Source of the DNA: a virus | Length of the DNA stretch: 43,860 nucleotides | IMG/VR virus record: IMGVR_UViG_3300005861_000343 | Location: 1-43,860 of that record | Direction: 5' to 3' (one strand) | Shown here: piece after piece, positions 1-25,442 of the stretch | Position numbering within the stretch: the stretch's first letter is position 1 | Layout: every line of letters begins with the position of its first letter | Position numbers and translations under genes: made by a program | The notes under the pieces: model-generated | Seen by the model: the letters and a program-made list of their open reading frames with translations, nothing else | Told to the model about the DNA's origin: nothing | The model's database searches: none

Positions 1-735
1 TCAAGCCGCCGTCGAGGCAAGTGCGCGGCGAACACACCTGGCGAGCGCCCGCGCCATCGGGAGCGGCACAGCGTTACCGAGCGCACGGATCTTTGCCTCC
101 ACGGTGAACCCAGGCAGATCCCAGTCGTCTGGCAAGCCCTGCAGCCGCCGATACTCACGGAAAACAGCCGCTGTCTTGTACCCATACGCGGACATAGAAT
201 GCGACCGCAGCCGGCCGCCGCGGCCCAACTTCGGGCGCCAACCGCCGCGCGCCATGCAACGCCGGCTAAATGCTGCACATTCGAGGGCGACCTCCTCGGC
301 ATGCGTATTTAGCGAGCGCCCATCGCGGGTCCCAAAGCTGAAGCGATGTAGCCGACTCTGCTCGCCGCCGATCCATCGGTTGTCGAACAGCGGCGCATGG
401 ACCTTGTACCCTGTGACCAGTGGCAACGGCGCGCGACGGACGTTCTCCATCACGAACCAATCGGGTTGCGCTTCATCGACCACCCGACAAAATTCCGGTA
501 TGAGGTCTTCCGCCAACTTCCCGTGCACTTTCAGGATCAGCGGCCGCAACGTAGTGAAAGGTTGGCAGGGAGTTCCGCCGATTACACCATCGAAGCGCCC
601 GGCGGGCGCATGAAAGCGCTTGACGTTGCCGCCCCACAGAAGATCGGGACCGCGCACGATGGTGAAACCCTCTTCCTCGAACCCGCGATCCAGCAGCCCG
701 ATCCCCGGGAAGAGAGACAGCACCAGATAGCTCAT
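1..735 (-). CDS. DNA (cytosine-5)-methyltransferase
   Basis: This 244-residue protein should methylate cytosine C5 in DNA using S-adenosylmethionine. Visible motifs in order: FPGIG (motif I, about residues 9-13), GGTPCQPF with catalytic Cys57 (motif IV), MENVR (motif VI, about 96-100), QSRLHR (motif VIII, about 126-131) and ALGNAVPLPM (motif X) near the C-terminus. It is short for the family, with a very small target-recognition region. The ATG overlaps the mor stop (ATGA), so it is the last visible gene of the early operon. No partner endonuclease is visible, so it is probably a solitary phage methyltransferase that protects against host restriction; that role is inferred. Confidence 0.93.
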   Translation of the reverse strand: MSYLVLSLFPGIGLLDRGFEEEGFTIVRGPDLLWGGNVKRFHAPAGRFDGVIGGTPCQPFTTLRPLILKVHGKLAEDLIPEFCRVVDEAQPDWFVMENVRRAPLPLVTGYKVHAPLFDNRWIGGEQSRLHRFSFGTRDGRSLNTHAEEVALECAAFSRRCMARGGWRPKLGRGGRLRSHSMSAYGYKTAAVFREYRRLQGLPDDWDLPGFTVEAKIRALGNAVPLPMARALARCVRRALASTAA

Positions 736-7430: not shown

Positions 7431-9485
7431 TCACGCTACGCGCCGTCGCAGCGCTTGGATCTCCGGCAACGGCTCGACCATCTTCAGGAAATCGAGATCG
7501 GACTGCGTCCGCTGCTCGCGTGGAGTGACGAGTAGCTTTTGGTAGCGCGCGACGATGGCCTCGGCCTCGGCCTCTTCGTCGTACGCGCCGCGCTTGAGTG
7601 ACAGAATCGATCGCACGGAAGCGTCGAGGCGCTCATGCTCGGCATCCGTCATCATCGGCGCGGCGGCCGCTGGTTCCCGCGCCGCCACGGCATCCGCCAC
7701 CGCGTCCAGCGTCCGCGTCCGCACTTCCTCAGCTTCCCGCGCGGGCACCAGCGTTACCGCCGTCGCCGAATCCGCATGCGCCTGCAGGTAGGCATCCGCT
7801 ACCCGGCGCAGATTGATCTTCTTCTTGAGCCGCGCGCCCTCCGCGCGATGCTCGCGCGTGAAGCGGTCCTGCGCCTCGCGCATCATCAGTGCCATCGTGC
7901 CGCGATCGATTCCCTTGCGTTCGGGATTGATTGCGACACAGACGAACTGATGGTCGCTGGAGTAGACCGCGATCTCACCGAGGTCGCGCGGGTCGAAATA
8001 CGCGTGCACCCGCTGGCCGATGTGCGCAACCAGTTCGTCGGCGATGTAATCAACACCGTCGATAGAGACGCCCTTCTTGGTGACGACGCGCAGTCCGTCG
8101 CCGCCGGGCGCCTGCGCCATCAGTTGGTCGAGCACGCGATCGTCGATGGCGCGCTTGACCGAGCGGCGGAGCAGCTCGGCCGCGACCTCATTGGGCGTAC
8201 GCCGTGCCAACTCGGAATGGGGCGCGTCGCCGTAGATGTTGCGCGCCCAGTTGTCGAGATGGGCCTGGAGCTGCTCGCCGGTGAGCGAGACCTCGAAGAT
8301 GGTGCGGTCCGTTTTACCGCGCCGCGCCGCCATCGAGAGCCGCTCGCGAATCGCCTGAGCCTGGGCCACATTCGCGCCGCGGTATCCGGGCAGGAGTGGC
8401 AGCAGGTCATGCGACATCGTGCCGTTGGCCCGCTCGATGAAGGGCTTTTGCCAGGGCGCGTACGGGAGAGACGGGTTCCAGGCGACCTCCAGCGCGGCGA
8501 GGATGCGCTGGGTATGGCGCGCGACGAACTCCTTCCCGTTGTCGCCGTGGACGGCTTCGGGGACGCCGAACTCGCGGATCCATTCGCGCAGCAGGAGTCC
8601 TACCGCGACGGATGTCACGGTTTTCGAGACGCGCCACCTGGTGGTGCGCGATGCGACGTCGATCATGCCGATGATCGCGTGGCGCCCGTCAACGCAATGG
8701 GCGTCGGCGGGCGTCGCGTCGATCTCCAGGAGCTCGCCGAAGCGCGTGATGCCGGCGGCCGCGTCCGCTACGGCGACGCGGTAGCGATTGTTGAACTCGC
8801 GCGGATTAGTCATCGCGGCCATCTCGGCGCGGTGCTCGGATGTCCACTTCCGGATGAAGCGTTGAATCTGGACTGTCGATGGTGTGGCGCCGTTGAAGCT
8901 CGGCTCGATCAGATGACGGATCTGGCGCGCCGAGAGGACAGGCTGCTGGATGACCATCGCGATGATCGACTCTTGCATATCTACAGATTGCACGACCTTC
9001 CCGCCTTTGGGTCGGCCGCGCTGGTCGATCAGACCCGCGACGCCGTCTTTGAGATAGCGCTTGACCCACCGATGGAGCGTCGGCCAGGGGGTTCCTTCGA
9101 TCGCGGCGAACTGCTTGAGCGCCGCCATCGTGGTGCCTGAGTTGGCGCGCCGGAACTCCTCGTAACGCTGCACCAGCTCGAAGCGCTGATCGAGCAGGTC
9201 CTGCTGCGCTTCGGAGAGCGCCGTGCCGAGCGGCGCGGGCGCGGCACGACCGGCCGGAGCACGGTCGCCGGCGGCGGCCAGATCGCGCGCCGGATCGATC
9301 TCGCGAGATTCGCGACGCATAAGAGCCAGCTTTTGCGCGCCGCTCAGATAGTTGATGCTGAACTCCCGATGCTCCGTGTCCCGTGGAGTCCACTTATGAC
9401 GGTTGACGTAGAGCTGAACGCCGCGCCGGGTGCGCGGCAGGCCGGGCAGGCCGGCCAGTTCTGCCACGGACAACCAGTCCTTCAT
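7431..9485 (-). CDS. A: MuA-like DDE transposase
   Basis: This 684-residue protein catalyses phage integration and replicative transposition. The N-terminus (1-60: MKDWLSVAELAGLPGLPRTR and following) is the Mu-type DNA-binding domain, followed by a helix-turn-helix region (about 95-215). The catalytic core shows LEIDATPAD (D256), VHGDNGKEF (D315) and FIERANGTM (E351), the DDE triad with normal spacing. The C-terminal part is charged and would contact MuB. The frame opens further upstream, but ATG at 9485 has GGAGG five bases ahead and starts with the family motif. It follows a small plus-strand gene in the early region. Confidence 0.96.
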   Translation of the reverse strand: MKDWLSVAELAGLPGLPRTRRGVQLYVNRHKWTPRDTEHREFSINYLSGAQKLALMRRESREIDPARDLAAAGDRAPAGRAAPAPLGTALSEAQQDLLDQRFELVQRYEEFRRANSGTTMAALKQFAAIEGTPWPTLHRWVKRYLKDGVAGLIDQRGRPKGGKVVQSVDMQESIIAMVIQQPVLSARQIRHLIEPSFNGATPSTVQIQRFIRKWTSEHRAEMAAMTNPREFNNRYRVAVADAAAGITRFGELLEIDATPADAHCVDGRHAIIGMIDVASRTTRWRVSKTVTSVAVGLLLREWIREFGVPEAVHGDNGKEFVARHTQRILAALEVAWNPSLPYAPWQKPFIERANGTMSHDLLPLLPGYRGANVAQAQAIRERLSMAARRGKTDRTIFEVSLTGEQLQAHLDNWARNIYGDAPHSELARRTPNEVAAELLRRSVKRAIDDRVLDQLMAQAPGGDGLRVVTKKGVSIDGVDYIADELVAHIGQRVHAYFDPRDLGEIAVYSSDHQFVCVAINPERKGIDRGTMALMMREAQDRFTREHRAEGARLKKKINLRRVADAYLQAHADSATAVTLVPAREAEEVRTRTLDAVADAVAAREPAAAAPMMTDAEHERLDASVRSILSLKRGAYDEEAEAEAIVARYQKLLVTPREQRTQSDLDFLKMVEPLPEIQALRRRVA

Positions 9486-9617
9486 GCATGCCTCCGCGAC
9501 CGGCAGATTCGAGGATCGCGGCCACGGCCGGCGCCACGGACTGGGCAATACCTGTGGCTGCCGGCCGCGCGTTGCCCTCCCCTTGGTGCAGGGGTGCGAC
9601 CAAAGGAGGGAGTGCAG

Positions 9618-10310: not shown

Positions 10311-10597
10311 AGACCGTTGGCCTCGCCATCCTGCGCCCGCGCCTCGACCAGGAACCTGGCGGCCGCGAGCCCGGTCGCCGTCAGCTCCCAGCGCCCACAG
10401 CGCTCCCTGATCAGCCACAGGCGCGAGGCGTCGAGCACCGCCGCCGAGAGACCGGCGAGGCGCGGATCTATCAGCCACGCGTCATCGTCGCAAAGCTCAT
10501 CGAAGGTAAGGCCCTCGCCGGAGTCCTCTTCGTAGAGAATGAGAATGACTGTCGGCCATTGCACTTGCCGTTCGATAATCTGAACTTCGCCGGTCAT
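10307..10597 (-). CDS. hypothetical early protein
   Basis: This 96-residue acidic protein has a beta-rich N-terminus (VQIIERQVQWPTVILILYEE) and a helical C-terminus with a winged-helix-like end (ERCGRWELTATGLAAARFL). It is coupled on both sides: the ATG overlaps the stop of the adenine methyltransferase (ATGA) and its own stop overlaps the next GTG. It could be a small DNA-binding or partner protein of the methyltransferase. No family recognised. Confidence 0.68.
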   Translation of the reverse strand: MTGEVQIIERQVQWPTVILILYEEDSGEGLTFDELCDDDAWLIDPRLAGLSAAVLDASRLWLIRERCGRWELTATGLAAARFLVEARAQDGEANGL

Positions 10598-11559
10598 GGC
10601 TGGGCCTCGCTTGCATACGGGACGAAGAGTGAGCCAATCTCGCGGAAGACGCGCGCGAACTTCTCGCGGTGGGGACCGAGATAAAAGAGCGCGCTGGGAA
10701 AGGGCGCCCCCGTCGCCAGCTTGGAGCCGTCAGCGGCACCGAAGCGCAAGCGCCCGCGGACGAAGCAGATCAGGGCCGCATCGGCGAGCTTGGAGAACCA
10801 GGCCGTATCCGTGCGCGCCGCGACCAGCGCAATCGCTTCTTCCACCTCGCCGGCTTGGAGGTCGCGCGTCAGCTTCGCCACCCAAAGCGAAACGGCATCG
10901 CCGTAGGGCGGATTCATATAGATGCGGCCCAGCCAGCGCCGCGTAAGGCCGTCATCTGTCTTGATGATGTGGTTGCGCGCGGGGACATTGGCCTGTTCGC
11001 GCCGCGCATTGCTGCAGGGGTCCAAATCGATCTCGCCGAGCACGGCGAGCACGGCCTGGACGATCTCCGGCGGCGTCAGCCATTCGTCGGAGTTGGAGGA
11101 CATCGCCGCGCCGCTTGCCAGAAAGCTGTTCGTGCTCGCGGTGCGCTTCATGCCCCGCAGGCGCTGCAGGCGCGCGTCGAACTCTTGCGCGGTCATCCGC
11201 GCGATCTGCTGCCACGCGGCCGACTGCTTCTTGGTGATGCCGAGGTCGTCGAGCGAGCAAAGTTCCGTTTTGGTACTTTGGTCGCCTCCGCGGCCGCGGC
11301 GCTCGCCCTTCTCAAATGCGACAAGCAGAAACTCGCCCGCCTTGCGCTCAGCGTGCAGGCGCGCCTCGCGCGCCAAGCTCTCTAGTTCGCGGGCCTGCGC
11401 CTCGCGGGCGTACTGCCGGATCGCTTCGATCCGATGGCGCACCTCGCGAGTTTCGGCCAGGGTCGCCGCGACGTCGATCGCGGTACGCATCTGGGTGAAA
11501 ACCTGCATTGGCTCCGCATCTAGGGCGCGCGGCCCGAGGGTGGCAACGGCGTGGGTCAC
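10594..11559 (-). CDS. fused helical domain and phage N6-adenine DNA methyltransferase
   Basis: This 321-residue protein has two parts. Residues 1-150 form a helical region with LESLAREARLHAERKAGE and LGITKKQSAAWQQIARM, a module that is often fused to phage methyltransferases and resembles a recognition or partner domain. Residues about 155-320 match the phage N-6-adenine-methyltransferase (DNA_N6_MTase) family: DEWLTPPEIVQAVL, the cofactor loop DLDPCS (about 178-183) and the catalytic NPPY (216-219). It should methylate adenine, likely against host restriction. GTG at 11559 overlaps the ner stop (GTGA). Confidence 0.88.
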   Translation of the reverse strand: MTHAVATLGPRALDAEPMQVFTQMRTAIDVAATLAETREVRHRIEAIRQYAREAQARELESLAREARLHAERKAGEFLLVAFEKGERRGRGGDQSTKTELCSLDDLGITKKQSAAWQQIARMTAQEFDARLQRLRGMKRTASTNSFLASGAAMSSNSDEWLTPPEIVQAVLAVLGEIDLDPCSNARREQANVPARNHIIKTDDGLTRRWLGRIYMNPPYGDAVSLWVAKLTRDLQAGEVEEAIALVAARTDTAWFSKLADAALICFVRGRLRFGAADGSKLATGAPFPSALFYLGPHREKFARVFREIGSLFVPYASEAQP

Positions 11560-13461: not shown

Positions 13462-13490
13462 ATCAGCGGACAAATGTCCGCCCTACCGGA
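13462..13490. repeat. 29-bp palindromic repeat, copy 1
   Basis: A 29-bp unit also found at 23743-23771 with no mismatch. Its core is a perfect 16-bp inverted repeat (GCGGACA-AA-TGTCCGC) and it ends in CCCTACCGGA. It sits in the 158-base gap before the lysozyme-like gene at 13570. It could be a host-type interspersed repeat, a regulator site, or an mRNA hairpin. Confidence 0.8.
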
Positions 13491-17098: not shown

Positions 17099-18616
17099 AT
17101 GCCTGATAGCCTGGAGATCCTCTTGCCCTACCAGCGCGATTGGATCGCCGATCGCGCGCCGGTGAAGGTGTACGAAAAGTCGCGCCGCATCGGCATCTCC
17201 TGGACCGAGGCCGCGGATTGCGCGCTGAGCGCCGGCACGGCAGGCGTGGCGGGACAGGATGTTTCCTACGTCGGCTACAACCGCGAGATGGCGCGGGAGT
17301 TTATCGACGATTGCGCGTTTTGGGCGCGCCGGATTCACCGCGCAGCCGTCGAAATCAACGAAGAGCTCATCCAGGACGAGGGACGCGACATACTGGCATA
17401 CCGGATCGATTTCGCCTCCGGGCACAAGATCCAAGCGCTGTCGTCGCGGCCGAGCAACCTGCGGGGACGCGAGGGAATCGCGGTGATCGATGAAGCCGCG
17501 TTCCACGACGATTTGCCCGAACTGCTCAAAGCGGCCCTCGCGTTTCTGATCTGGGGCGGATGCGTTCGGGTCATCTCGACCCACAACGGTGCCGACAACC
17601 CATTTGCGGAGCTGGTCGCCGACATCCGCGCCGGACGCAAGTCCTACTCGCTGCATCGGACGGACTTCGACGAAGCACTGGCCGCGGGCCTCTATCGCAA
17701 GATCTGCGAGCGCAAGGGTGACCTCTGGACGCTCGACGGCGAGCGCGCCTGGCGCGCCGAGATCATCGCGCTGTACCGCGACAACGTTGACGAGGAGCTG
17801 TTCTGTATTCCGCGGCGGGGGGGAGGCGCATATCTGCCGTCGCTCCTGATCGAGTCGCGGATGCGCGCGGAGATCCCGGTCATCCGCTGGGATTTCCCCC
17901 AGGATTTGATGTTCGACGACGAGGTAGCGCGCCGGCGCGCCGCCGAGGACTTTTGCGACGAGCATCTGGCGCCGGTTTTGCCGCGGCTCAATGACCAGCT
18001 GATCAGCGTGTTCGGCGAAGACTTCGGCCGCACCGGCGACTTGACCGTCATATGGCCGCTGCAGCTCGGCGCGGGGCTGACACGACGCACGCCATTTGTC
18101 GTCGAGCTGCGCGGCGTCCCGTTCGAGCAGCAGCGCCAGCTCCTGTTCTTCATCGTCGATCGATTGCCGCGATTCGTGGCCGGCGCGATGGATGCGCGCG
18201 GCAACGGGCAGTACCTGGCCGAGCAGGCGGCGCTCAAATACGGCGCGTGCGTGGAGCAGGTGATGCTGTCCGCGGGTTGGTATCGGGACAATATGCCGCG
18301 CTACAAGGCGGCTTTCGAGGACGGCACGATTGAGCTCCCCAAAGACGCGGACATCCTGGGGGACCATCGGATGCTGGTGATGGATCGGGGCATCGCCCAC
18401 ATTCCGGATCGCCGGGAGCGCGGCAGCACCGGGATGCGCCACGGCGACTCGGCGATCGCCGGCGCGCTCGCCTGGTACGCGAGCACGCTCGACCCTCCGA
18501 CCTGCCGCGGTTTTATTCCGGTCGCGCGCATTCGACCTTTCACGGAGAGGCCGAGCGACGACACGCTGGATCGCGGCGCGCAGGGAATCCGGCGCCGCCG
18601 CTTTCGAGCTTACTGA
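17099..18616 (+). CDS. large terminase subunit (Mu gp28-like)
   Basis: This 505-residue protein packages DNA. The ATPase motif is a Walker A variant EKSRRIGISW (about residues 26-35), Walker B is GIAVIDEAAF with D131 and E132, and coupling-type STHNGADNP follows. The C-terminal nuclease region shows GEDFGRTGDLTVIWPL, AMDARGNGQYL and MRHGDSAIAGALAWYA, with the acidic residues expected of an RNase-H-like nuclease. The end is Arg-rich. It matches the Mu large terminase by order and motif. Confidence 0.93.
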   Translation: MPDSLEILLPYQRDWIADRAPVKVYEKSRRIGISWTEAADCALSAGTAGVAGQDVSYVGYNREMAREFIDDCAFWARRIHRAAVEINEELIQDEGRDILAYRIDFASGHKIQALSSRPSNLRGREGIAVIDEAAFHDDLPELLKAALAFLIWGGCVRVISTHNGADNPFAELVADIRAGRKSYSLHRTDFDEALAAGLYRKICERKGDLWTLDGERAWRAEIIALYRDNVDEELFCIPRRGGGAYLPSLLIESRMRAEIPVIRWDFPQDLMFDDEVARRRAAEDFCDEHLAPVLPRLNDQLISVFGEDFGRTGDLTVIWPLQLGAGLTRRTPFVVELRGVPFEQQRQLLFFIVDRLPRFVAGAMDARGNGQYLAEQAALKYGACVEQVMLSAGWYRDNMPRYKAAFEDGTIELPKDADILGDHRMLVMDRGIAHIPDRRERGSTGMRHGDSAIAGALAWYASTLDPPTCRGFIPVARIRPFTERPSDDTLDRGAQGIRRRRFRAY

Positions 18617-18628
18617 GGAGATTCTGCG

Positions 18629-19051
18629 ATGGCCGAGCTGCAAAGCCTGCTGGGACGCCTGGAGGACGCGCGCATTCGACTGCAACGGATGCGCGATCAG
18701 CGCGAGAAACTGGCGGCAGCGATCGCCGAGGGTGAGCGCCAGGTCAAGGCGATTCTCGCCGATGTCCAGCTCGAAGCGCTGGGCAGTAAGCCGGCGGCTG
18801 GCCGCGTTCGGCACCGCACCGGGGAGATGCGCGAGGGCGTGATCCATCTGTTGATGGCCGAGGATGCGATGCGCGTGCCGGAGATCGCGGCGCGGATGAG
18901 CGCCACGACGGCGAGTGTCTACGCGTGCCTGGCGGCGCTCAAGAAAGAGGGCATCGTCGTCGCCCTGGAGGACCATCACTTTGGCCTGACCTTCGAGGAG
19001 CGCGATCGGCGCCGAATCGCCGGCGCGGGAGAATCGCATGCCGCTGTATGA
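18629..19051 (+). CDS. coiled-coil plus winged-helix protein between terminase and portal
   Basis: This 140-residue protein has a heptad helix (about residues 1-48: LQSLLGRLEDARIRLQRM and RDQREKLAAAIAEGERQV) and a winged helix at about 65-125 (EDAMRVPEIAARMSATTASV then ALKKEGIVVALEDHHFGL). It is not part of the usual Mu head order. It may bind DNA or be a packaging-linked regulator. It overlaps the portal start by 14 bases, which argues it is expressed with the head genes. Function unknown. Confidence 0.68.
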   Translation: MAELQSLLGRLEDARIRLQRMRDQREKLAAAIAEGERQVKAILADVQLEALGSKPAAGRVRHRTGEMREGVIHLLMAEDAMRVPEIAARMSATTASVYACLAALKKEGIVVALEDHHFGLTFEERDRRRIAGAGESHAAV

Positions 19052-20822
19052 CGCATATGGGCGTCCCGTCGATACCCAGGCGCTGCGCGGCGAGCAGGCC
19101 GCGCCGACCGTCGCGGGCATCCGCAATATTTATTCTGTCGTGCACCCGAGTCAGAACCTCTCGCCAGAGCGGTTGGTCGCGGTGTTGCGTACGGCGGAGA
19201 TGGGCGATCCGTGGCTGTACCTCGAGCTGGCCGAGGACATGGAAGAGAAGGACCTCCATTACCTGAGCGTGCTCTCTACGCGCAAGCACGCGGTGGCCCA
19301 GCTCGAGTTGAGCGTGCAGGCGGCCTCCGAGGATCCCGCCGATATCGCGGACGCGGATTTCGTGCGCGAGGCGCTGTTGGAGGGTCCGCTGGACCTGCGC
19401 ACTGCTCTTTTCGACATCCTCGATGCGATCGGCAAGGGCTTCAGCGTAACTGAAATCAGCTGGGACACGGGAGGCCGCGAATGGATCCCCGTGCAACTTA
19501 CCTGGCGCGATCCGCGCTGGTTCATGTTCGACTGGGTATCGGGTGAGCAATTGCTCGTACGCACGCTCTCGAGCGACGGCACGCCACTTCCCGCGGCGAC
19601 GGCCAACAGCACTTCGAGCGGCGGATCGCACCTGGCGTCGATCGCGCCGAACCTCTCGATGACGCGCACTGGGGCGGAGATCGGCATACAACCGGCGACC
19701 GCCCCGCTGCGACCATTCAAGTTCATCACGCATCTGGGACGCGCGAAATCGGGGCTCCCGATTCGCGGGGGCATCGCAAGATTGGCGGCCTGGGCGTACC
19801 TGTTCAAGACCTATGTGCTCAAGGACTGGGTCGCGTTCGGCGAGACTTACGGGCAGCCCCTGCGCGTGGGCAAGTACGGGCCGGGGGCCAGCGAGCAGGA
19901 CAAGCAGGCGCTGCTCCAGGCGGTGGCCAGTATCGGCGCCGACGCGACCGCGATAATTCCGCAGAGCATGGTGATCGAGTTCATCGAAGCGAAGGTCACC
20001 GGCTCGATCGATCTATATGAGAAACTGTGCGATTGGCTGGACCGGCAGACCAGCAAGGGCGTGCTCGGGCAGACGCTGACCACCGAATTGCCCAAGGGGG
20101 GCGGCTCGCGGGCGGCGGCCGAGGTGCATGACGCCGTGCGGCGCGATATCGCGGCCGACGACGCCCAGCGGCTGTGCGGGTCGCTCAATCGCGACCTGGT
20201 AAAGCCGCTGATCGATCTGAATCGCGGGCCGCGCGCCCGTTACCCCAAAATCATGCTGGGATTCCCCAGCGATGAAGATCTGGAGACCCTGAGCGCCGCG
20301 ATTACACCATTTATCGACAGGGGTCTGCCGGTCGAGCAACGCGAAGTGCTCAAGAAATTTGGCTTGTCGCTGCCAGCGGCGGGCGCGCCGATTCTGCATC
20401 CGGCGGAGAAAATCCAGGGTCAGGATGCGGGCAGCGCGCCACAACCAGCATCTGAGGTCGGCGATATCGGCGCGGCTCCATTCACCGAGGTGACCGCGGC
20501 GCGCAAGGGCAAGGGCAACGGCAAGAGCGATACGCCGGCGCTGGACGCGATCGATCGGTTCTGCGCGCGGTTGCGGGACGAGTCCGATCCAGCGATGGCG
20601 CCGATTATCCGGCCGCTGCTGGCCGAGATGCGCCAGGCGCGCGGTTATGAGGATCTCAAGCGCCGGATGGTGCGGGCGGTGGCGGCGATGGATCCGGGCA
20701 AGTTTGAGGAGCTGATGGCGCGGGCGGGATTCGCGCTGAACGTCGCCGGGAATCTGGGCCTCAGCGTCGCGCAGGACGCGCCGCGCCGGCGCCGGGCAAC
20801 TAGGATAGCGGGCCGGGAATAA
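19038..20822 (+). CDS. portal protein (Mu gp29-like, DUF935)
   Basis: This 594-residue protein forms the portal ring. It matches Mu gp29/DUF935: YDAYGRPVDTQALRGEQA at the start, VLRTAEMGDPWLYLELAEDM, LSTRKHAVAQLEL, then KGFSVTEISWDTGGREWIPV and LRPFKFITHLGRAKSGLPIR, with a helical stem region LAAWAYLFKTYVLKDWVAF (about 250-280). The C-terminal 130 residues are charged and less conserved. It has the expected place after the terminase and before F. Confidence 0.92.
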   Translation: MPLYDAYGRPVDTQALRGEQAAPTVAGIRNIYSVVHPSQNLSPERLVAVLRTAEMGDPWLYLELAEDMEEKDLHYLSVLSTRKHAVAQLELSVQAASEDPADIADADFVREALLEGPLDLRTALFDILDAIGKGFSVTEISWDTGGREWIPVQLTWRDPRWFMFDWVSGEQLLVRTLSSDGTPLPAATANSTSSGGSHLASIAPNLSMTRTGAEIGIQPATAPLRPFKFITHLGRAKSGLPIRGGIARLAAWAYLFKTYVLKDWVAFGETYGQPLRVGKYGPGASEQDKQALLQAVASIGADATAIIPQSMVIEFIEAKVTGSIDLYEKLCDWLDRQTSKGVLGQTLTTELPKGGGSRAAAEVHDAVRRDIAADDAQRLCGSLNRDLVKPLIDLNRGPRARYPKIMLGFPSDEDLETLSAAITPFIDRGLPVEQREVLKKFGLSLPAAGAPILHPAEKIQGQDAGSAPQPASEVGDIGAAPFTEVTAARKGKGNGKSDTPALDAIDRFCARLRDESDPAMAPIIRPLLAEMRQARGYEDLKRRMVRAVAAMDPGKFEELMARAGFALNVAGNLGLSVAQDAPRRRRATRIAGRE

Positions 20823-20885
20823 AAACGGCCGTACGGGCCATGAACGAAGCGCTAGCGCTTTGTTTGGATGACGGGAGGATGGGTG

Positions 20886-21128
20886 ATGAGGAAATGCAGC
20901 GGGTGCGATGCTCAGTTCGAGCCGAAACGCAAAGATCAGAAGTATCACAGCACGCCGTGCCGCCGGGACCATCAGAACCAGGTCGCCAGGCGCGCACTGG
21001 CGCGCACCACGAAGGCGCGCGCGCGGCGCCTATCCTTCGAGCCGGTGGTCAAGCGATGCGCGGTACGCGGATGTCGGGCGATCTTTCTGCCGGCGATCGA
21101 CGCGACCGGGGCCGACGCAGCGCTCTGA
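20886..21128 (+). CDS. small zinc-finger protein after portal
   Basis: This 80-residue protein begins MRKCSGCDAQFEPKRKDQKY with the pair CSGC, then a third Cys in STPCRRDHQNQ, matching a small zinc finger of the type CxxC...F.P.R..Q.Y...C. A second Cys pair CAVRGC lies near the middle. ATG at 20886 is chosen because GGGAGG lies 7 bases ahead. It is not part of the standard Mu head cluster. Possible DNA-binding role; no family recognised. Confidence 0.7.
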   Translation: MRKCSGCDAQFEPKRKDQKYHSTPCRRDHQNQVARRALARTTKARARRLSFEPVVKRCAVRGCRAIFLPAIDATGADAAL

Positions 21129-21212
21129 TTCAGCCATCGGCGGTCCGAAGATGCGCGTGCGCTTTTCGCCCTATCTAATGATGGGACGAGAAATGCGTCG
21201 GCCGTCGCGCAA

Positions 21213-21320
21213 TTGAATCCGCGCCAGGAGATAGAGCTGGGGCGAATCCGGGACGTGCTGCGCGGGGCCTGCGAAATATGGCACGGCGCGCCCTGCGAAC
21301 ATCAGGGGTGCGCCTCGTGA
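21213..21320 (+). CDS. possible tiny ORF coupled to the next gene
   Basis: This frame would give 35 residues (NPRQEIELGRIRDVLRGACE and so on) ending in a stop that overlaps the next gene GTG (GTGA). The only start is a TTG at 21213 with no ribosome site. The frame is the same as that of the preceding zinc-finger gene, which ends at a TGA (21126-21128), so it could be an old continuation of it. Low confidence. Confidence 0.3.
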   Translation: MNPRQEIELGRIRDVLRGACEIWHGAPCEHQGCAS

Positions 21321-21823
21321 GGACGCGGGTCGAGCCACTGACCGAGGAGTGGCTGAGATCAGTCGGATTCAAGTGGCATCAACTGGAGCGGCAGCCCGAA
21401 AAGCATTGGCTGTTGTGGCTCGGCGACTGCCTCGGAGGGGGTCTGACGAGCTATGAGGACCTGGGCGTCGAGGTCGCGTACGGCTCCTATGATCGCGCGA
21501 CCAGGACTCGCGATCATTGGTTCTGTTGGCTGCGGGGCGACTCAGCCGGCCTGTACCACCGGTTCATCCATGTCCGCGCCCTGTACTATCGCGAGGAGCT
21601 GATCGACCTGGTCGAGGGGCTCACCGGCCACGTGTGGGACCCGACCAATCATCTATATGGCAGTATCCGGACCGCGCGCGCCGCGGAGCATATCCGGCGC
21701 GAGGACGAGCGCCTGGATCGGCAAATGATGCGCGAGCGCCCCTGGGCGCAGATCGAAAGAGACGAGTCGCGCGGACGCGCGCTGCCCGAGCATAAGGAAG
21801 CCGTCGAAGGAAAAAGCAAATGA
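21317..21823 (+). CDS. hypothetical phage protein in portal-F interval
   Basis: This protein of about 168 residues has a beta-alpha N-terminus (LTEEWLRSVGFKWHQLERQP then HWLLWLGDCLGGGLTSYEDL) that resembles small phage proteins with a 'LTEEWL.S.GFK' start. The C-terminus is helical and charged (AAEHIRREDERLDRQMMRER). GTG at 21317 is chosen (AGGGG about 8 bases upstream, and GTGA overlap). It is an accessory insertion, not a Mu core gene. Function unknown. Confidence 0.66.
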   Translation: MRTRVEPLTEEWLRSVGFKWHQLERQPEKHWLLWLGDCLGGGLTSYEDLGVEVAYGSYDRATRTRDHWFCWLRGDSAGLYHRFIHVRALYYREELIDLVEGLTGHVWDPTNHLYGSIRTARAAEHIRREDERLDRQMMRERPWAQIERDESRGRALPEHKEAVEGKSK

Positions 21824-22236
21824 GCGAGCCGAAGCTGATCGATGTCGGAGGCGGCCTGCATATAGTAGATGACGCCGAGGCCCGAAACGGTCCCGAAACG
21901 GAACCGTTTGGACCGCGCCGGGATCCTGCGAGCGAGGAGCTGCGCGAGATCGGCGCCGAGCTGCGCAAGCCGGTAACGGCGCAGCGGCGGGACTATCCCA
22001 ACCTGATGCTGGCGATCGGCTTGGAGGCGCTGTACCGGCAGACGCAGGAACATATCGCGCGGCAGGGTCATATTCTCTCGCGCAAGGAGTTCATGGCGCT
22101 GGGCTTCTCGCTCCTGGTGCCCGCCCCCACCCTCCTGCAGCTCATGCAGCGGGGGCTGCCGTTCATGCTGGTGCAGCAGCCGCAACCGCCGGGTCAGGTC
22201 CCGCGCAATCCGCTGAGTATCATCAAGCGTGGCTGA
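21820..22236 (+). CDS. hypothetical protein before the F-like head protein
   Basis: This 138-residue protein has an acidic N-terminus with a short turn (VGGGLHIVDDAEARNGPETE), a helical middle (NLMLAIGLEALYRQTQEHIA), and a hydrophobic, proline-rich end (ALGFSLLVPAPTLLQLMQ and QPQPPGQVPRNPLS). It overlaps the preceding gene by ATGA and the F-like gene by 8 bases. No family recognised. It may be a head assembly accessory, given its place. Confidence 0.65.
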   Translation: MSEPKLIDVGGGLHIVDDAEARNGPETEPFGPRRDPASEELREIGAELRKPVTAQRRDYPNLMLAIGLEALYRQTQEHIARQGHILSRKEFMALGFSLLVPAPTLLQLMQRGLPFMLVQQPQPPGQVPRNPLSIIKRG

Positions 22237-23575
22237 TTATCGCGGCAATAACGCGGCGGACTTCGACTTCGCGGCGTTGCCGCCGGAAGAGGCGGTCGAG
22301 TTTTTCCGCAAGAAGGGCTACCAGGTCGGTTTCGATTGGCGCGACGTCTGGCAGCAGGAGCATCAGCGGGCCTTCACGGTCGCCAAGGCGATGACGGTCG
22401 ATCTCCTGCAGGATATCCGCGCGGTGGTCGACAAGGCGATCGCCGAGGGGATCGACTTCCAGGATTTCCGCGAGAATCTGGAGCCGATCCTGCGTGCCCG
22501 CGGATGGTGGGGGCGCCAGGAGATGGTCGATCCGCTGACCGGAAAGAAGCGGGACGTGCAGCTCGGATCCGCGCGCCGATTGCAGATCATCTATGACACG
22601 AACCTGCGCACGAGCCTCGCGGCCGGCCATTGGCAGCAGATCCAGCGTACCAAGAAAGACCTACCGTACCTGCGCTACGTCGACCCGGATCCGAATCCGC
22701 GGCCGCAACATCTGGATTGGAGCGGCACGATCCTGCCGGTCGATGATCCCTGGTGGTCGGCGCACTATCCGCCCAACGGCTACAACTGCAAGTGCTACGC
22801 CGACGCGCTCTCCGACGATGACCTGGAGCGCTACGGCTTTGAGCGCAGCCCGGCCGCGCCGCCTTCGCCGACGCACACGTACACCAATCCGCGCACGGGG
22901 CAGAGCTACGAGGTGCCTGATGGGGTAGCGCCGGAGTTCGCATACAATGTGGGCGAGACGGGAATCGTCGAGCCGGCGGAGCAGATGCTGGAAGCGAAGC
23001 TCGCCGCCGCAGACCCGGATATCGCGCATGCGGTGCGAGAGATGGTCGCGCCGAGCGCGGCGCTGCCCGATGATGCGATCGCGCGCAAGCTGGCGCGGCG
23101 TCCCGAAGCTCACCGGATCATGCAACGCGTACCGGCGCGCGAATGGCGCGCGGCGTGGGATTACTGCACCGACTCCGACCCTATCAACGACCCGTGGCGG
23201 CGGCATGGAGAGCTAACACCGCAGGCGAAGGACCTGCTCGCGCTGATGGGCAAGTTGCCGCGATTCAGCGGAGTTACCTGGCGCGGGGAAGAGCGCGCCT
23301 TGACGCCGGGCTTGATCGCAGATCTCACACCGGGAAGCGCTGTGACGCCGCAGGCCTTCTGGAGCACCAGCCGGAGCCGCTATCGGGGTCGCCGGTTTGC
23401 CGGGGCCGAGGGCATCCTCTACGAACTGCACGGGATCCGCGGGCGCCAGATAGAAGCACTGTCGCCGTTCCCGCGGCAGAAGGAGGTCCTCTTTGACCCG
23501 TGGGCTCGCTTCGAGGTAATATCAGCTAATCGCGAGGGGAAAATCCTCCATGTCGTTATCAAAGAAAAGCCCTGA
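22229..23575 (+). CDS. Mu F-like minor head protein fused to ADP-ribosyltransferase
   Basis: This 448-residue protein has two domains. Residues 1-210 match the Mu F/SPP1 gp7-like head morphogenesis family: long helices, then DPDPNPRPQHLDWSGTILPV and WWSAHYPPNGYNCKCYADAL. The C-terminal 105 residues match R-S-E class ADP-ribosyltransferases: TWRGE (R352), FWSTSRS (Ser-Thr-Ser, 379-381), and RQKEVLF (Q417-x-E419) before WARFEVIS. Since Q rather than E comes first, the target may not be arginine. GTG at 22229 overlaps the previous stop. The domain could be injected to modify host proteins; that is inference. Confidence 0.88.
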   Translation: MADYRGNNAADFDFAALPPEEAVEFFRKKGYQVGFDWRDVWQQEHQRAFTVAKAMTVDLLQDIRAVVDKAIAEGIDFQDFRENLEPILRARGWWGRQEMVDPLTGKKRDVQLGSARRLQIIYDTNLRTSLAAGHWQQIQRTKKDLPYLRYVDPDPNPRPQHLDWSGTILPVDDPWWSAHYPPNGYNCKCYADALSDDDLERYGFERSPAAPPSPTHTYTNPRTGQSYEVPDGVAPEFAYNVGETGIVEPAEQMLEAKLAAADPDIAHAVREMVAPSAALPDDAIARKLARRPEAHRIMQRVPAREWRAAWDYCTDSDPINDPWRRHGELTPQAKDLLALMGKLPRFSGVTWRGEERALTPGLIADLTPGSAVTPQAFWSTSRSRYRGRRFAGAEGILYELHGIRGRQIEALSPFPRQKEVLFDPWARFEVISANREGKILHVVIKEKP

Positions 23576-23738
23576 TGCGCGCGCCCGCGAAGCGTCTCCC
23601 AACGAACCGCCCATCTGGCCTCGCGGTAGCGTCGGTCTCGTGCCAGTCGGTAAAGCGCCGAAAGTAACCCCGGAGGTTGCCGAGGAGCTGCTCGCGCTAG
23701 GTATCCGCGTGCCGCCAGATCGCATCGCGCCGCGCTAG
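23550..23738 (+). CDS. small protein after the ADP-ribosyltransferase fusion
   Basis: This 62-residue protein starts 26 bases inside the end of the F/ADP-ribosyltransferase gene, with a GAGGGG upstream. It has a basic start (MSLSKKSPDARAREASPNEP) and a helical end (APKVTPEVAEELLALGIRVP). It is followed by the second copy of the 29-bp repeat. It could be a small head protein or regulator of the enzyme domain; no evidence for either. Ends in TAG, rare in this window. Confidence 0.6.
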   Translation: MSLSKKSPDARAREASPNEPPIWPRGSVGLVPVGKAPKVTPEVAEELLALGIRVPPDRIAPR

Positions 23739-23742
23739 TCCA

Positions 23743-23771
23743 ATCAGCGGACAAATGTCCGCCCTACCGGA
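23743..23771. repeat. 29-bp palindromic repeat, copy 2
   Basis: Identical to 13462-13490 over 29 bases, with the GCGGACA-AA-TGTCCGC hairpin core. It lies in the short gap between the 62-residue ORF and the protease gene (23802), about 30 bases before the latter start. Flanks differ from copy 1 on both sides, so the unit is bounded. Confidence 0.8.
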
Positions 23772-23801: not shown

Positions 23802-25442
23802 ATGGCCACCGTTCCGACTCGCACGCAGGATAGACTGCCTGATTCGGCGTTCGCTTATATAGCGCCCGGCGGCCGCAAGGACTCGACTGGGCGCACGGTC
23901 CCCCGCTCCAAACGCCATCTGCTGATCGACGACGCCGCTCATGTGCGCGACGCGGCCGCTCGCTTCAATCAGACCCAGTTTCATTCGCTGGCCGCCAAGC
24001 GCGCCGCGTGGCTCAAGATCGAGCGGGCGGCCGGCAAGTTCGGGATCAAGCTGACCAAGCGCTTGGGCGCGAACGGTCAATTAATCGATCGCAAGGTCGA
24101 ACGCGCTGCTTCGGACAACGTAATTACTTCCGCGTACAGCGTCGTGATCGAGGGCAATCCGCCGGAGTGGGTCGAGCTGCTGCCCTGCAACGGGAAGCCG
24201 TTCAAGGCCAGCGACGGAAGGGGACCGTTCACCCTCTCGGACCCGATGGCGGTCATCAAAGCCAGTCTGAGTGCCGCGGCGGGTGAATGCCTGCCGATCG
24301 ATTACGACCATGCGACCGATTTCGCGGCTCCCGAGGGGCGGCCGGCGCCGGCCGCAGGGTGGATCCGCGAGTTGGCCGTGCGCGACGGCGCCATCTGGGG
24401 GCGCGTCGAATGGACGGAGCGCGGTGCGCAGTCCGTATCCGCGAAAGAGTATCGATTCATATCGCCGGTGTTCGACGTGGCGCAGGATGTTGCGTCGGAT
24501 GACGTGCGGGGTGAGATCACCCTGATTCGTCGCGCCGCCCTGACGAACAATCCGGCGTTGGAGCTTACCGCAGTCGCCAGCAAGAGGAGTTTCGCGATGG
24601 CCAAGAAGAGCAAGATTGACGCCCTGGTCGAGCAGATCCAGGAAGCGGCCGATGAAACCGGGCTGCCGGTCGATACGCTGCTGGAAGGTATAAGCCACAA
24701 GCTGGGCGGCGATCTGACGGATCCCGATGGCGGCGGCGAGAATGACGAGCCGGCCGACGATCCGGCCGATGAGGGTGCCGCGGGCGGCGGCGATCCCGCC
24801 GGCGCGGCACCCGACGATGACGATGAAGAAGCGATGGCGCGGGAGCGCCATCGGGAGGCCGCGGCGACCCGCGAGCGCGACGGAATCGTCGAGGCGCCGG
24901 CCGAGCGGATGGAGCGGGAGACGGCCGAGCAGGAAGAGTTGGCCGCGGCGCGCAAGTCGAAGAAAGCCCGGGAGGACGAGCGGCGCGCCGGGCGCCTATC
25001 GAATGCCGAGCGCGACGCGCGCCGGGCTGGGGACCGGAACCCGCGCGAGGACGCTCTGCGCGATATCCATCGGACCTCCGCGCGGGCGATCGCGAGCCAT
25101 CCCACGGTGCTCAAGATGGCGCGTGAGCTGCGCGATCTGCAGCTCGAGCGCGCCCGAGAAAAAGCGACTACCGCGGTCACCGCAGCCATTCGCGAGCGGC
25201 GCCTGCCCCCGAGCCAGCGCGACTGGGCGATCGCGTACGCAATGGAATCGCCGGCCGGGTTCCAGAAATTCATCAAGTCGATGCCGGTGATGATCGACGA
25301 TGCGCCGGCCGCGGCGGGCTCTCCGCAGCAGGGTGTAACGCTGTCGCGTAGCGAGTTGGCCGTCTGCTCGGCCCTGAAGCTCGACCCCAAGCAGTTCGCC
25401 CAGCGGCGCAGCGTCGCGATGGCGCGCGAGCTCGGCGCGTAA
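23802..25442 (+). CDS. Mu I-like head maturation protease with scaffold region
   Basis: This 546-residue protein has three parts. Residues 1-95 are a DUF6582-like domain (LPDSAFAYIAPGGRKDSTGR and LIDDAAHVRDAAARFNQTQF), often seen fused to phage proteases and capsid proteins. Residues about 105-260 are the protease, with ECLPIDYDHATDF (likely catalytic region) and RGAQSVSAKEYRFISPVFDV. From about 266 an acidic, helical scaffold follows, rich in Asp, Glu and Arg, ending in a Gly-Ala-Pro stretch. It cleaves the scaffold and head proteins in procapsid maturation. Confidence 0.88.
   Translation: MATVPTRTQDRLPDSAFAYIAPGGRKDSTGRTVPRSKRHLLIDDAAHVRDAAARFNQTQFHSLAAKRAAWLKIERAAGKFGIKLTKRLGANGQLIDRKVERAASDNVITSAYSVVIEGNPPEWVELLPCNGKPFKASDGRGPFTLSDPMAVIKASLSAAAGECLPIDYDHATDFAAPEGRPAPAAGWIRELAVRDGAIWGRVEWTERGAQSVSAKEYRFISPVFDVAQDVASDDVRGEITLIRRAALTNNPALELTAVASKRSFAMAKKSKIDALVEQIQEAADETGLPVDTLLEGISHKLGGDLTDPDGGGENDEPADDPADEGAAGGGDPAGAAPDDDDEEAMARERHREAAATRERDGIVEAPAERMERETAEQEELAAARKSKKAREDERRAGRLSNAERDARRAGDRNPREDALRDIHRTSARAIASHPTVLKMARELRDLQLERAREKATTAVTAAIRERRLPPSQRDWAIAYAMESPAGFQKFIKSMPVMIDDAPAAAGSPQQGVTLSRSELAVCSALKLDPKQFAQRRSVAMARELGA
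24597..25442 (+). CDS. internal-start scaffold protein (Mu Z-like)
   Basis: An in-frame ATG at 24597 begins residue 266 of the protease gene. It has AGAGGAG (24583-24589) at 7 bases, a strong ribosome site, and yields a 281-residue acidic coiled protein, MAKKSKIDALVEQIQEAADE onward. Mu makes its scaffold Z from an internal start within gene I, so the same design is very likely here. Confidence 0.72.
   Translation: MAKKSKIDALVEQIQEAADETGLPVDTLLEGISHKLGGDLTDPDGGGENDEPADDPADEGAAGGGDPAGAAPDDDDEEAMARERHREAAATRERDGIVEAPAERMERETAEQEELAAARKSKKAREDERRAGRLSNAERDARRAGDRNPREDALRDIHRTSARAIASHPTVLKMARELRDLQLERAREKATTAVTAAIRERRLPPSQRDWAIAYAMESPAGFQKFIKSMPVMIDDAPAAAGSPQQGVTLSRSELAVCSALKLDPKQFAQRRSVAMARELGA

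What the first reader, a model, noticed from the sequence alone, without database searches (positions are those of the whole stretch)
23264..23575. ADP-ribosyltransferase domain fused to the minor head protein
The Mu F-like protein ends with an R-S-E type ART: TWRGE (R352), STS (379-381) and a QxE motif (Q417, E419). Head proteins with ART domains are reported in some phages, but not commonly in Mu-like ones. The QxE form argues against arginine as a target and toward asparagine, nucleic acid or another acceptor. Being in the head it could be delivered with DNA to modify host targets early.
Basis: partly seen in the sequence, partly recalled or inferred. Interest (0 to 1): 0.78.

Follow-up and report, generated by a model that had tools for sequence, protein, structure and literature searches.

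The report
Mu-like phage MuF-ADP-ribosyltransferase head toxin
A Mu-like phage carries, fused to the end of a minor protein of its head, an enzyme domain that very probably tags molecules with ADP-ribose; such fusions are a known class of phage-borne toxin, and the uncommon detail here is an active-site glutamine (QxE) that points away from arginine as the target.

Summary
The ART model (pLDDT 93.6) matches the T6SS toxin Tre1 at Z 18.8. The domain is about 150 residues (from about 23093-23129), so the given coordinates miss its helical lobe. The phage is a Mu-like transposable myovirus. The one divergent full-length relative (Deltaproteobacteria MAG, 54% identity) keeps R, S-x-S and QxE. A 62-aa ORF (23550-23738) overlaps the gene by 26 nt, is conserved with the same overlap in that relative, and appears in none of the other MuF loci searched: a candidate immunity gene. 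In the relative, both genes sit in a bacterial chromosome without other phage genes. MuF-ART fusions are already described (MuF polymorphic toxins, EFV, Bxa). QxE is the less usual feature; it also occurs in a second, distant group of MuF-ART phages. Most likely: a phage-carried MuF polymorphic toxin that ADP-ribosylates a non-arginine acceptor. Delivery, toxicity, acceptor and immunity are all untested. New member of a known kind, modest interest.

The parts
22229..23575 (+). MuF-ART fusion gene, 448 aa, GTG start overlapping the stop of the ORF upstream (21820-22236)
   Evidence: identical copy in IMG/VR contig 3300025503_000166 (8,534 of 8,534 bases identical over L002)
22229..23044 (+). 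N-terminal MuF / minor head part (PF04233 at res 61-190; PHROG 220 at res 10-272)
   Evidence: invariant residues across 44 relatives
23093..23572 (+). C-terminal R-S-E ART domain including its helical lobe (res 289-448)
   Evidence: AlphaFold2 pLDDT 93.6; Tre1 Foldseek E 1.2e-12, Z 18.8
23282..23284 (+). R352, the R of R-S-E
   Evidence: aligned Arg in 18 of 18 MuF-ARTs of the panel
23363..23371 (+). S379-T380-S381 motif
   Evidence: first Ser in 18 of 18 of the panel, third position S or T
23462..23485 (+). ARTT loop S412-P-F414-P-R-Q417-K-E419 (QxE form)
   Evidence: pattern per PMC7827354
23550..23738 (+). 62-aa ORF overlapping the MuF-ART gene by 26 nt, GAGGGG ten bases before its ATG; candidate immunity gene
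   Evidence: homologue with the same 26-nt overlap only downstream of the L077 MuF-ART (phmmer E about 1e-6, 40% identity); pN 0.41 vs pS 0.75 outside the overlap
17099..18616 (+). terminase large subunit
   Evidence: PHROG 2
19038..20822 (+). Mu-type portal protein
   Evidence: PF06074 E 4e-104
23802..25442 (+). Mu-like head maturation protease (I)
   Evidence: PF10123 E 9e-48
7431..9548 (-). MuA-like transposase; the phage is transposable and so temperate
   Evidence: PHROG 310 E 1e-92

Best explanation
It is a MuF-type polymorphic toxin of a Mu-like transposable myophage. The N-terminal MuF part places the protein at the portal inside the head (inferred from MuF/SPP1 gp7 biology). The C-terminal R-S-E ART uses NAD+ to modify a host macromolecule after entering with the phage DNA (inferred). 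Because the ARTT loop is QxE rather than ExE, the acceptor is more likely an asparagine/glutamine-type side chain or a nucleic-acid base than arginine (inferred from C3, ScARP and iota toxin). The overlapping 62-aa ORF probably encodes an inhibitor protecting the producing cell (inferred). Shown here: the fusion, the fold, the catalytic signature, its conservation in a 54%-identical relative, the phage context and the linked small ORF.
For: MuF domain between portal and protease genes of a Mu-like phage. ART fold and R-S-QxE signature. R, S and QxE kept in L077 at 50% identity in the ART; pN well below pS in MuF, ART and small ORF. Close MuF relatives carry other C-terminal domains (PBECR2, PBECR3, MuF_C, lethal-factor-like ATLF, ART), the swapping expected of polymorphic toxins. 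The small ORF is linked only to the two MuF-ARTs of this type. In L077 the two genes occur together in a bacterial chromosome with no other phage genes. Literature: MuF toxins (PMC5576092), Bxa MuF-ART kills E. coli and has two immunity proteins (PMC11699363), Alt/VIP2-type ARTs fused to MuF (PMC9503650).
Against: No activity, packaging, delivery or immunity was or could be tested. Only one divergent relative of this exact type was found. The small ORF has no recognised family and its linkage rests on two phylogenetically close cases. Published MuF toxins with an identified toxin domain are concentrated in Firmicutes (PMC5576092). A temperate phage could use a mild ART for host takeover rather than killing. 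The full-length model is poor (pLDDT 69.7), so the placement of the ART relative to MuF is unknown.
Confidence: 0.6

Rival explanations
1. Alt-like host-takeover enzyme: the ART is injected with the DNA and modifies host RNA polymerase or other proteins to favour early phage expression or lysogeny. It is not a toxin needing immunity, and the 62-aa ORF is a small head or morphogenesis gene.
For: Fusion to a head protein next to the portal; T4 Alt is head-packaged and injected, and Iyer et al. favour this role for many MuF-ARTs (PMC9503650). The phage BFVD matches include head, portal and Alt-like proteins.
Against: T4 Alt is reported to modify arginine (own knowledge), whereas QxE argues against arginine. 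The small ORF is tied to this ART rather than to MuF genes in general, and travels with it in L077 without other phage genes.
Confidence: 0.25
2. NAD glycohydrolase: the domain hydrolyses NAD+ without a macromolecular acceptor, acting by NAD depletion.
For: ART-fold effectors that only deplete NAD(P) exist (Tne5, PMC13285283). Loss of the first Glu of ExE is known to favour NAD hydrolysis over transfer in arginine ARTs (own knowledge).
Against: QxE enzymes with known acceptors (C3, ScARP) are true transferases (PMC7827354). The whole R-S-E signature and ARTT aromatic are kept here, whereas Tne5 lacks a canonical ART active site and its Glu is dispensable.
Confidence: 0.1
3. Inactive ART fold kept for a structural role in the head.
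For: XopAI, one of the nearest solved relatives, has 'ftgE' where R352 aligns, so degenerate ART folds occur; the classical Mu F carries an inactive PBECR domain (PMC5512222).
Against: R, S, Q and E are all kept in window and L077 while half of the ART residues changed. Most MuF relatives lack an ART altogether, so the head does not need it.
Confidence: 0.05

Closest known systems
MuF polymorphic toxins (Jamet et al. 2017, PMC5576092), incl. E. faecalis EFV toxin (MuF-ART)
   Same: N-terminal MuF (PF04233), C-terminal toxin-type ART, temperate phage, small ORF downstream, swapped C-termini in relatives
   Different: Mu-like phage with proteobacterial relatives, rather than a Firmicutes prophage where published MuF toxins concentrate; QxE ART
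Bxa of Bacteroides stercoris prophage (PMC11699363)
   Same: MuF fused to an ART, adjacent small ORFs, one a non-enzymatic binding immunity protein
   Different: Bxa modifies arginines and has an ADP-ribosyl hydrolase neighbour; here QxE, and no hydrolase or macrodomain among the window ORFs scanned
Tre1 of Serratia proteamaculans (T6SS; PDB 6DRE/6DRH)
   Same: Closest solved relative by sequence and fold (E 1.2e-7; Z 18.8, 25% identity)
   Different: Tre1 is ExE, arginine-specific (FtsZ) and PAAR/T6SS-delivered; this one is QxE and MuF-linked
C3-like and ScARP-type QxE ARTs
   Same: ARTT loop phi-x-x-Q-x-E; R-S-E fold (C3bot2 Z 15.5)
   Different: Only 16-19% identity to C3 over the domain; nearer to the ExE Tre1/Vis group, so QxE may be convergent
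Phage T4 Alt
   Same: R-S-E ART carried with a phage head
   Different: Alt is a free internal protein, not a MuF fusion; arginine acceptor (own knowledge)

Membership tests
R-S-E class ADP-ribosyltransferases | Arg on strand 1 | tested here: met
   R352; aligned Arg in 18 of 18 of the MuF-ART panel
R-S-E class ADP-ribosyltransferases | S-x-S/T on strand 2 | tested here: met
   S379-T-S381; S-A-S in L077
R-S-E class ADP-ribosyltransferases | [E/Q]-x-E in an ARTT loop with aromatic at position 3 | tested here: met
   SPFPRQKE (F414, Q417, E419); Y, Q, E in L077; pattern PMC7827354
R-S-E class ADP-ribosyltransferases | ART fold | tested here: met
   (predicted model)
R-S-E class ADP-ribosyltransferases | NAD-dependent transfer activity | not testable with these tools
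   needs an assay
MuF polymorphic toxins | N-terminal MuF domain encoded near the portal gene | tested here: met
   PF04233 62.6 bits vs cut-off 29.6; portal at 19038-20822, three small ORFs lie between
MuF polymorphic toxins | variable C-terminal toxin domain among relatives | tested here: met
   ART, PBECR2, PBECR3, MuF_C, ATLF among 44 relatives
MuF polymorphic toxins | small downstream ORF as immunity gene | tested here: inconclusive
   ORF present, conserved and specific to this type; neutralisation untested
MuF polymorphic toxins | temperate phage | tested here: met
   MuA-like transposase
MuF polymorphic toxins | antibacterial toxicity | not testable with these tools
   needs expression
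Arginine-specific ARTs (Tre1, Vis, Bxa) | E-x-E in the ARTT loop | tested here: not met
   Q417-K-E419; QRE in L077
C3-like ARTs (Asn of Rho) | phi-x-x-Q-x-E ARTT loop | tested here: met
C3-like ARTs (Asn of Rho) | sequence membership closest to C3 proteins | tested here: not met
   Tre1, Vis and XopAI score better than C3 by profile; Tre1 and Vis also by fold
T4 Alt-type injected ART | packaged in head and injected | not testable with these tools
   needs virion proteomics and an entry assay

The most novel reading that the evidence does not exclude
A head-carried, phage-delivered ART of QxE type that modifies a bacterial acceptor other than arginine (an Asn/Gln side chain or a nucleic-acid base), with a new 62-aa immunity protein, and whose toxin-immunity pair can leave the phage and persist alone in a bacterial chromosome.
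Probability: 0.3. Interest if true: 0.6.

Novelty: new member of a known kind. Interest (0 to 1): 0.36.

Why it matters
Whether MuF toxins enter cells with phage DNA, and what they do there, is open. The characterised MuF-ART (Bxa) modifies arginine. A QxE member in a Mu-like phage, together with a second QxE group in other MuF phages, gives a clean comparison: same delivery part, different predicted chemistry, with a small overlapping gene as a testable inhibitor.

Tried and rejected
Chance motif: rejected by fold and profile matches. DNA-targeting ARTs of the pierisin type: not among the 50 rows shown by either PDB fold comparison, which does not exclude such an acceptor. More relatives of this exact type: scans of viral contigs, plasmids, phage records and 148 class-mates of the L077 genome gave only the identical contig, distant types and a degenerate fragment; genome contigs gave L077 and L078. 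Neighbouring hydrolase or macrodomain immunity: none in the window ORFs scanned, though not every window ORF was scanned. Clean empty site for the L077 gene pair: not obtained; relatives G053 and G054 carry a different 278-aa ORF between the same flanking genes. Full-length model is poor in the ART, probably because most aligned relatives have other C-termini, so it was not used. Conservation of the middle T of STS: not kept (A in L077, variable elsewhere). PADLOC: no match for the window protein or the small ORF.

Full report
Observation. The 448-aa ORF at 22229-23575 (+) begins with a GTG that overlaps the stop of the previous ORF. Its N-terminal half is a Phage_Mu_F domain (PF04233, 62.6 bits, cut-off 29.6) and it matches PHROG 220, 'minor head protein and DNA pilot', at E 2e-87.

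The C-terminal domain is an R-S-E ADP-ribosyltransferase. Pfam ART and ADPrib_exo_Tox match just below their curated cut-offs (21.6 vs 22.3 and 17.4 vs 23.4 bits), which is why a standard annotation could miss it. A single-sequence phmmer against the PDB gives Tre1 (6dre) at E 1.2e-7 and Vis at 1e-4; a profile gives Tre1 at 2.7e-28 and reaches C3, VIP2 and iota toxin. The AlphaFold2 model of residues 289-448 has pLDDT 93.6 and pTM 0.85. Foldseek puts Tre1 first (E 1.2e-12) and VIA-align gives Z 18.8, rmsd 2.0 over 150 residues, then Vis 17.0, ExoS 16.1, HopU1 16.0 and C3bot2 15.5. The domain therefore starts at about 23093-23129, earlier than the given 23264.

Context. The genome is Mu-like: MuA-like transposase, a TniB/MuB-like ATPase and Gp27, Mu portal and Mu-like protease, contractile tail sheath and baseplate. 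The record is a 43,860-base virus contig with no host named. A second contig, IMG/VR 3300025503_000166, is identical over the 8,534 bases compared.

Relatives. Of 44 MuF proteins with long C-termini (window included), three match Pfam ART at E up to 0.01; others carry PBECR2 (7), MuF_C (4), PBECR3 or an anthrax-lethal-factor-like ATLF match. So the head part is shared and the tail part is swapped. The only divergent relative of the same type is L077, in a Deltaproteobacteria MAG (JAKBMB010000032.1), 54% identical over the full length. It keeps R, S-A-S and QRE, and pN is well below pS in MuF, ART and the small ORF.

QxE. Tre1 and Vis read E-x-E at the same loop, as do L078 and the MuF-ARTs of Elanor-like phages. 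A second, distant group of MuF-ARTs (human faecal phage MT835752 and IMG/VR L137-L145) reads Q-x-E, with a six-residue longer loop. In the 18-sequence panel 9 are QxE and 9 ExE by the printed alignment, but the panel is small, was gathered by queries of both kinds, and its members are not independent. The loop S-P-F-P-R-Q-K-E fits the published ARTT pattern. In that work Q at position 6 goes with asparagine (C3) or guanine (ScARP), E with arginine, and changing Q to E in C3 switches asparagine to arginine (PMC7827354). That makes arginine the less likely acceptor; it does not tell which other one.

Small ORF. ORF 23550-23738 (62 aa) overlaps the fusion gene by 26 nt, has GAGGGG ten bases before its ATG, and has a 40%-identical homologue with the same overlap after L077's MuF-ART. 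No homologue was found in the other MuF loci held at that point (L004-L097), including L078, whose MuF part is about as close. Outside the overlap pN is 0.41 and pS 0.75. This is what a linked immunity gene would look like. With two related cases it is not proof.

The L077 gene pair lies between a HhH-GPD glycosylase gene and a 480-aa gene followed by MoxR, DUF58 and VWA genes. A tblastn of all window ORFs found no other convincing phage gene in 34 kb around it. Relatives keep the flanking order but have a different 278-aa ORF between. So the pair is found without the rest of a phage; whether it is a remnant or a retained unit is open.

Comparison with the known. MuF proteins with C-terminal toxins, ARTs included, were defined as MuF polymorphic toxins in 2017; 14% of the 191 toxins were putative ARTs, and delivery with DNA was proposed (PMC5576092). 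The 2022 survey states that many Alt/VIP2-type ARTs are fused to MuF (PMC9503650). Bxa, a MuF-ART, kills E. coli when expressed and has two immunity proteins (PMC11699363). A Microbacterium phage protein is already labelled 'ADP-ribosyltransferase domain and MuF-like fusion protein'. The finding is therefore a new member of a known kind. Its less usual points are the Mu-like transposable carrier, the QxE loop, and the overlapping specific small ORF.

What is shown and what is inferred. Shown: fusion, predicted fold, signature, conservation, phage context, linked ORF. Inferred: packaging, injection, enzymatic activity, non-arginine acceptor, antibacterial effect, immunity.

Noticed in passing
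L111:14118-15639 (-), G001 contig C24: The L077-type MuF-ART and its small ORF sit together in a bacterial chromosome with no other recognisable phage gene in about 34 kb.
   Followed up: partly
L137-L145 and L099: A separate group of MuF-ART phages with QxE and a six-residue longer ARTT loop.
   Followed up: partly
L078:1509-3800 (+): A 764-aa stop-to-stop frame with MuF at the N-terminus and a divergent ExE ART at the C-terminus, with about 250 residues between them that look kinase-like by eye (not tested).
   Followed up: no
window 13466-13481 and 23747-23762: Near-palindrome GCGGACAAATGTCCGC present twice inside an about 29-bp repeat, one copy just after the small ORF; 4 strand matches vs 0.83 expected by shuffling. 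In viral contigs it was found only in the identical phage.
   Followed up: partly
window 10594-11559 (-) and 1-735 (-): Dam-type adenine methyltransferase and a C5-cytosine methyltransferase, the latter at the window edge.
   Followed up: no
window 20840-22236 (+): Three ORFs of 112, 181 and 138 aa between portal and MuF without a convincing Pfam or PHROG match.
   Followed up: no
relatives of the window's MuF, alignment A1: One MuF relative matches an anthrax-lethal-factor-like domain (ATLF, E 6e-5), seven match PBECR2.
   Followed up: no
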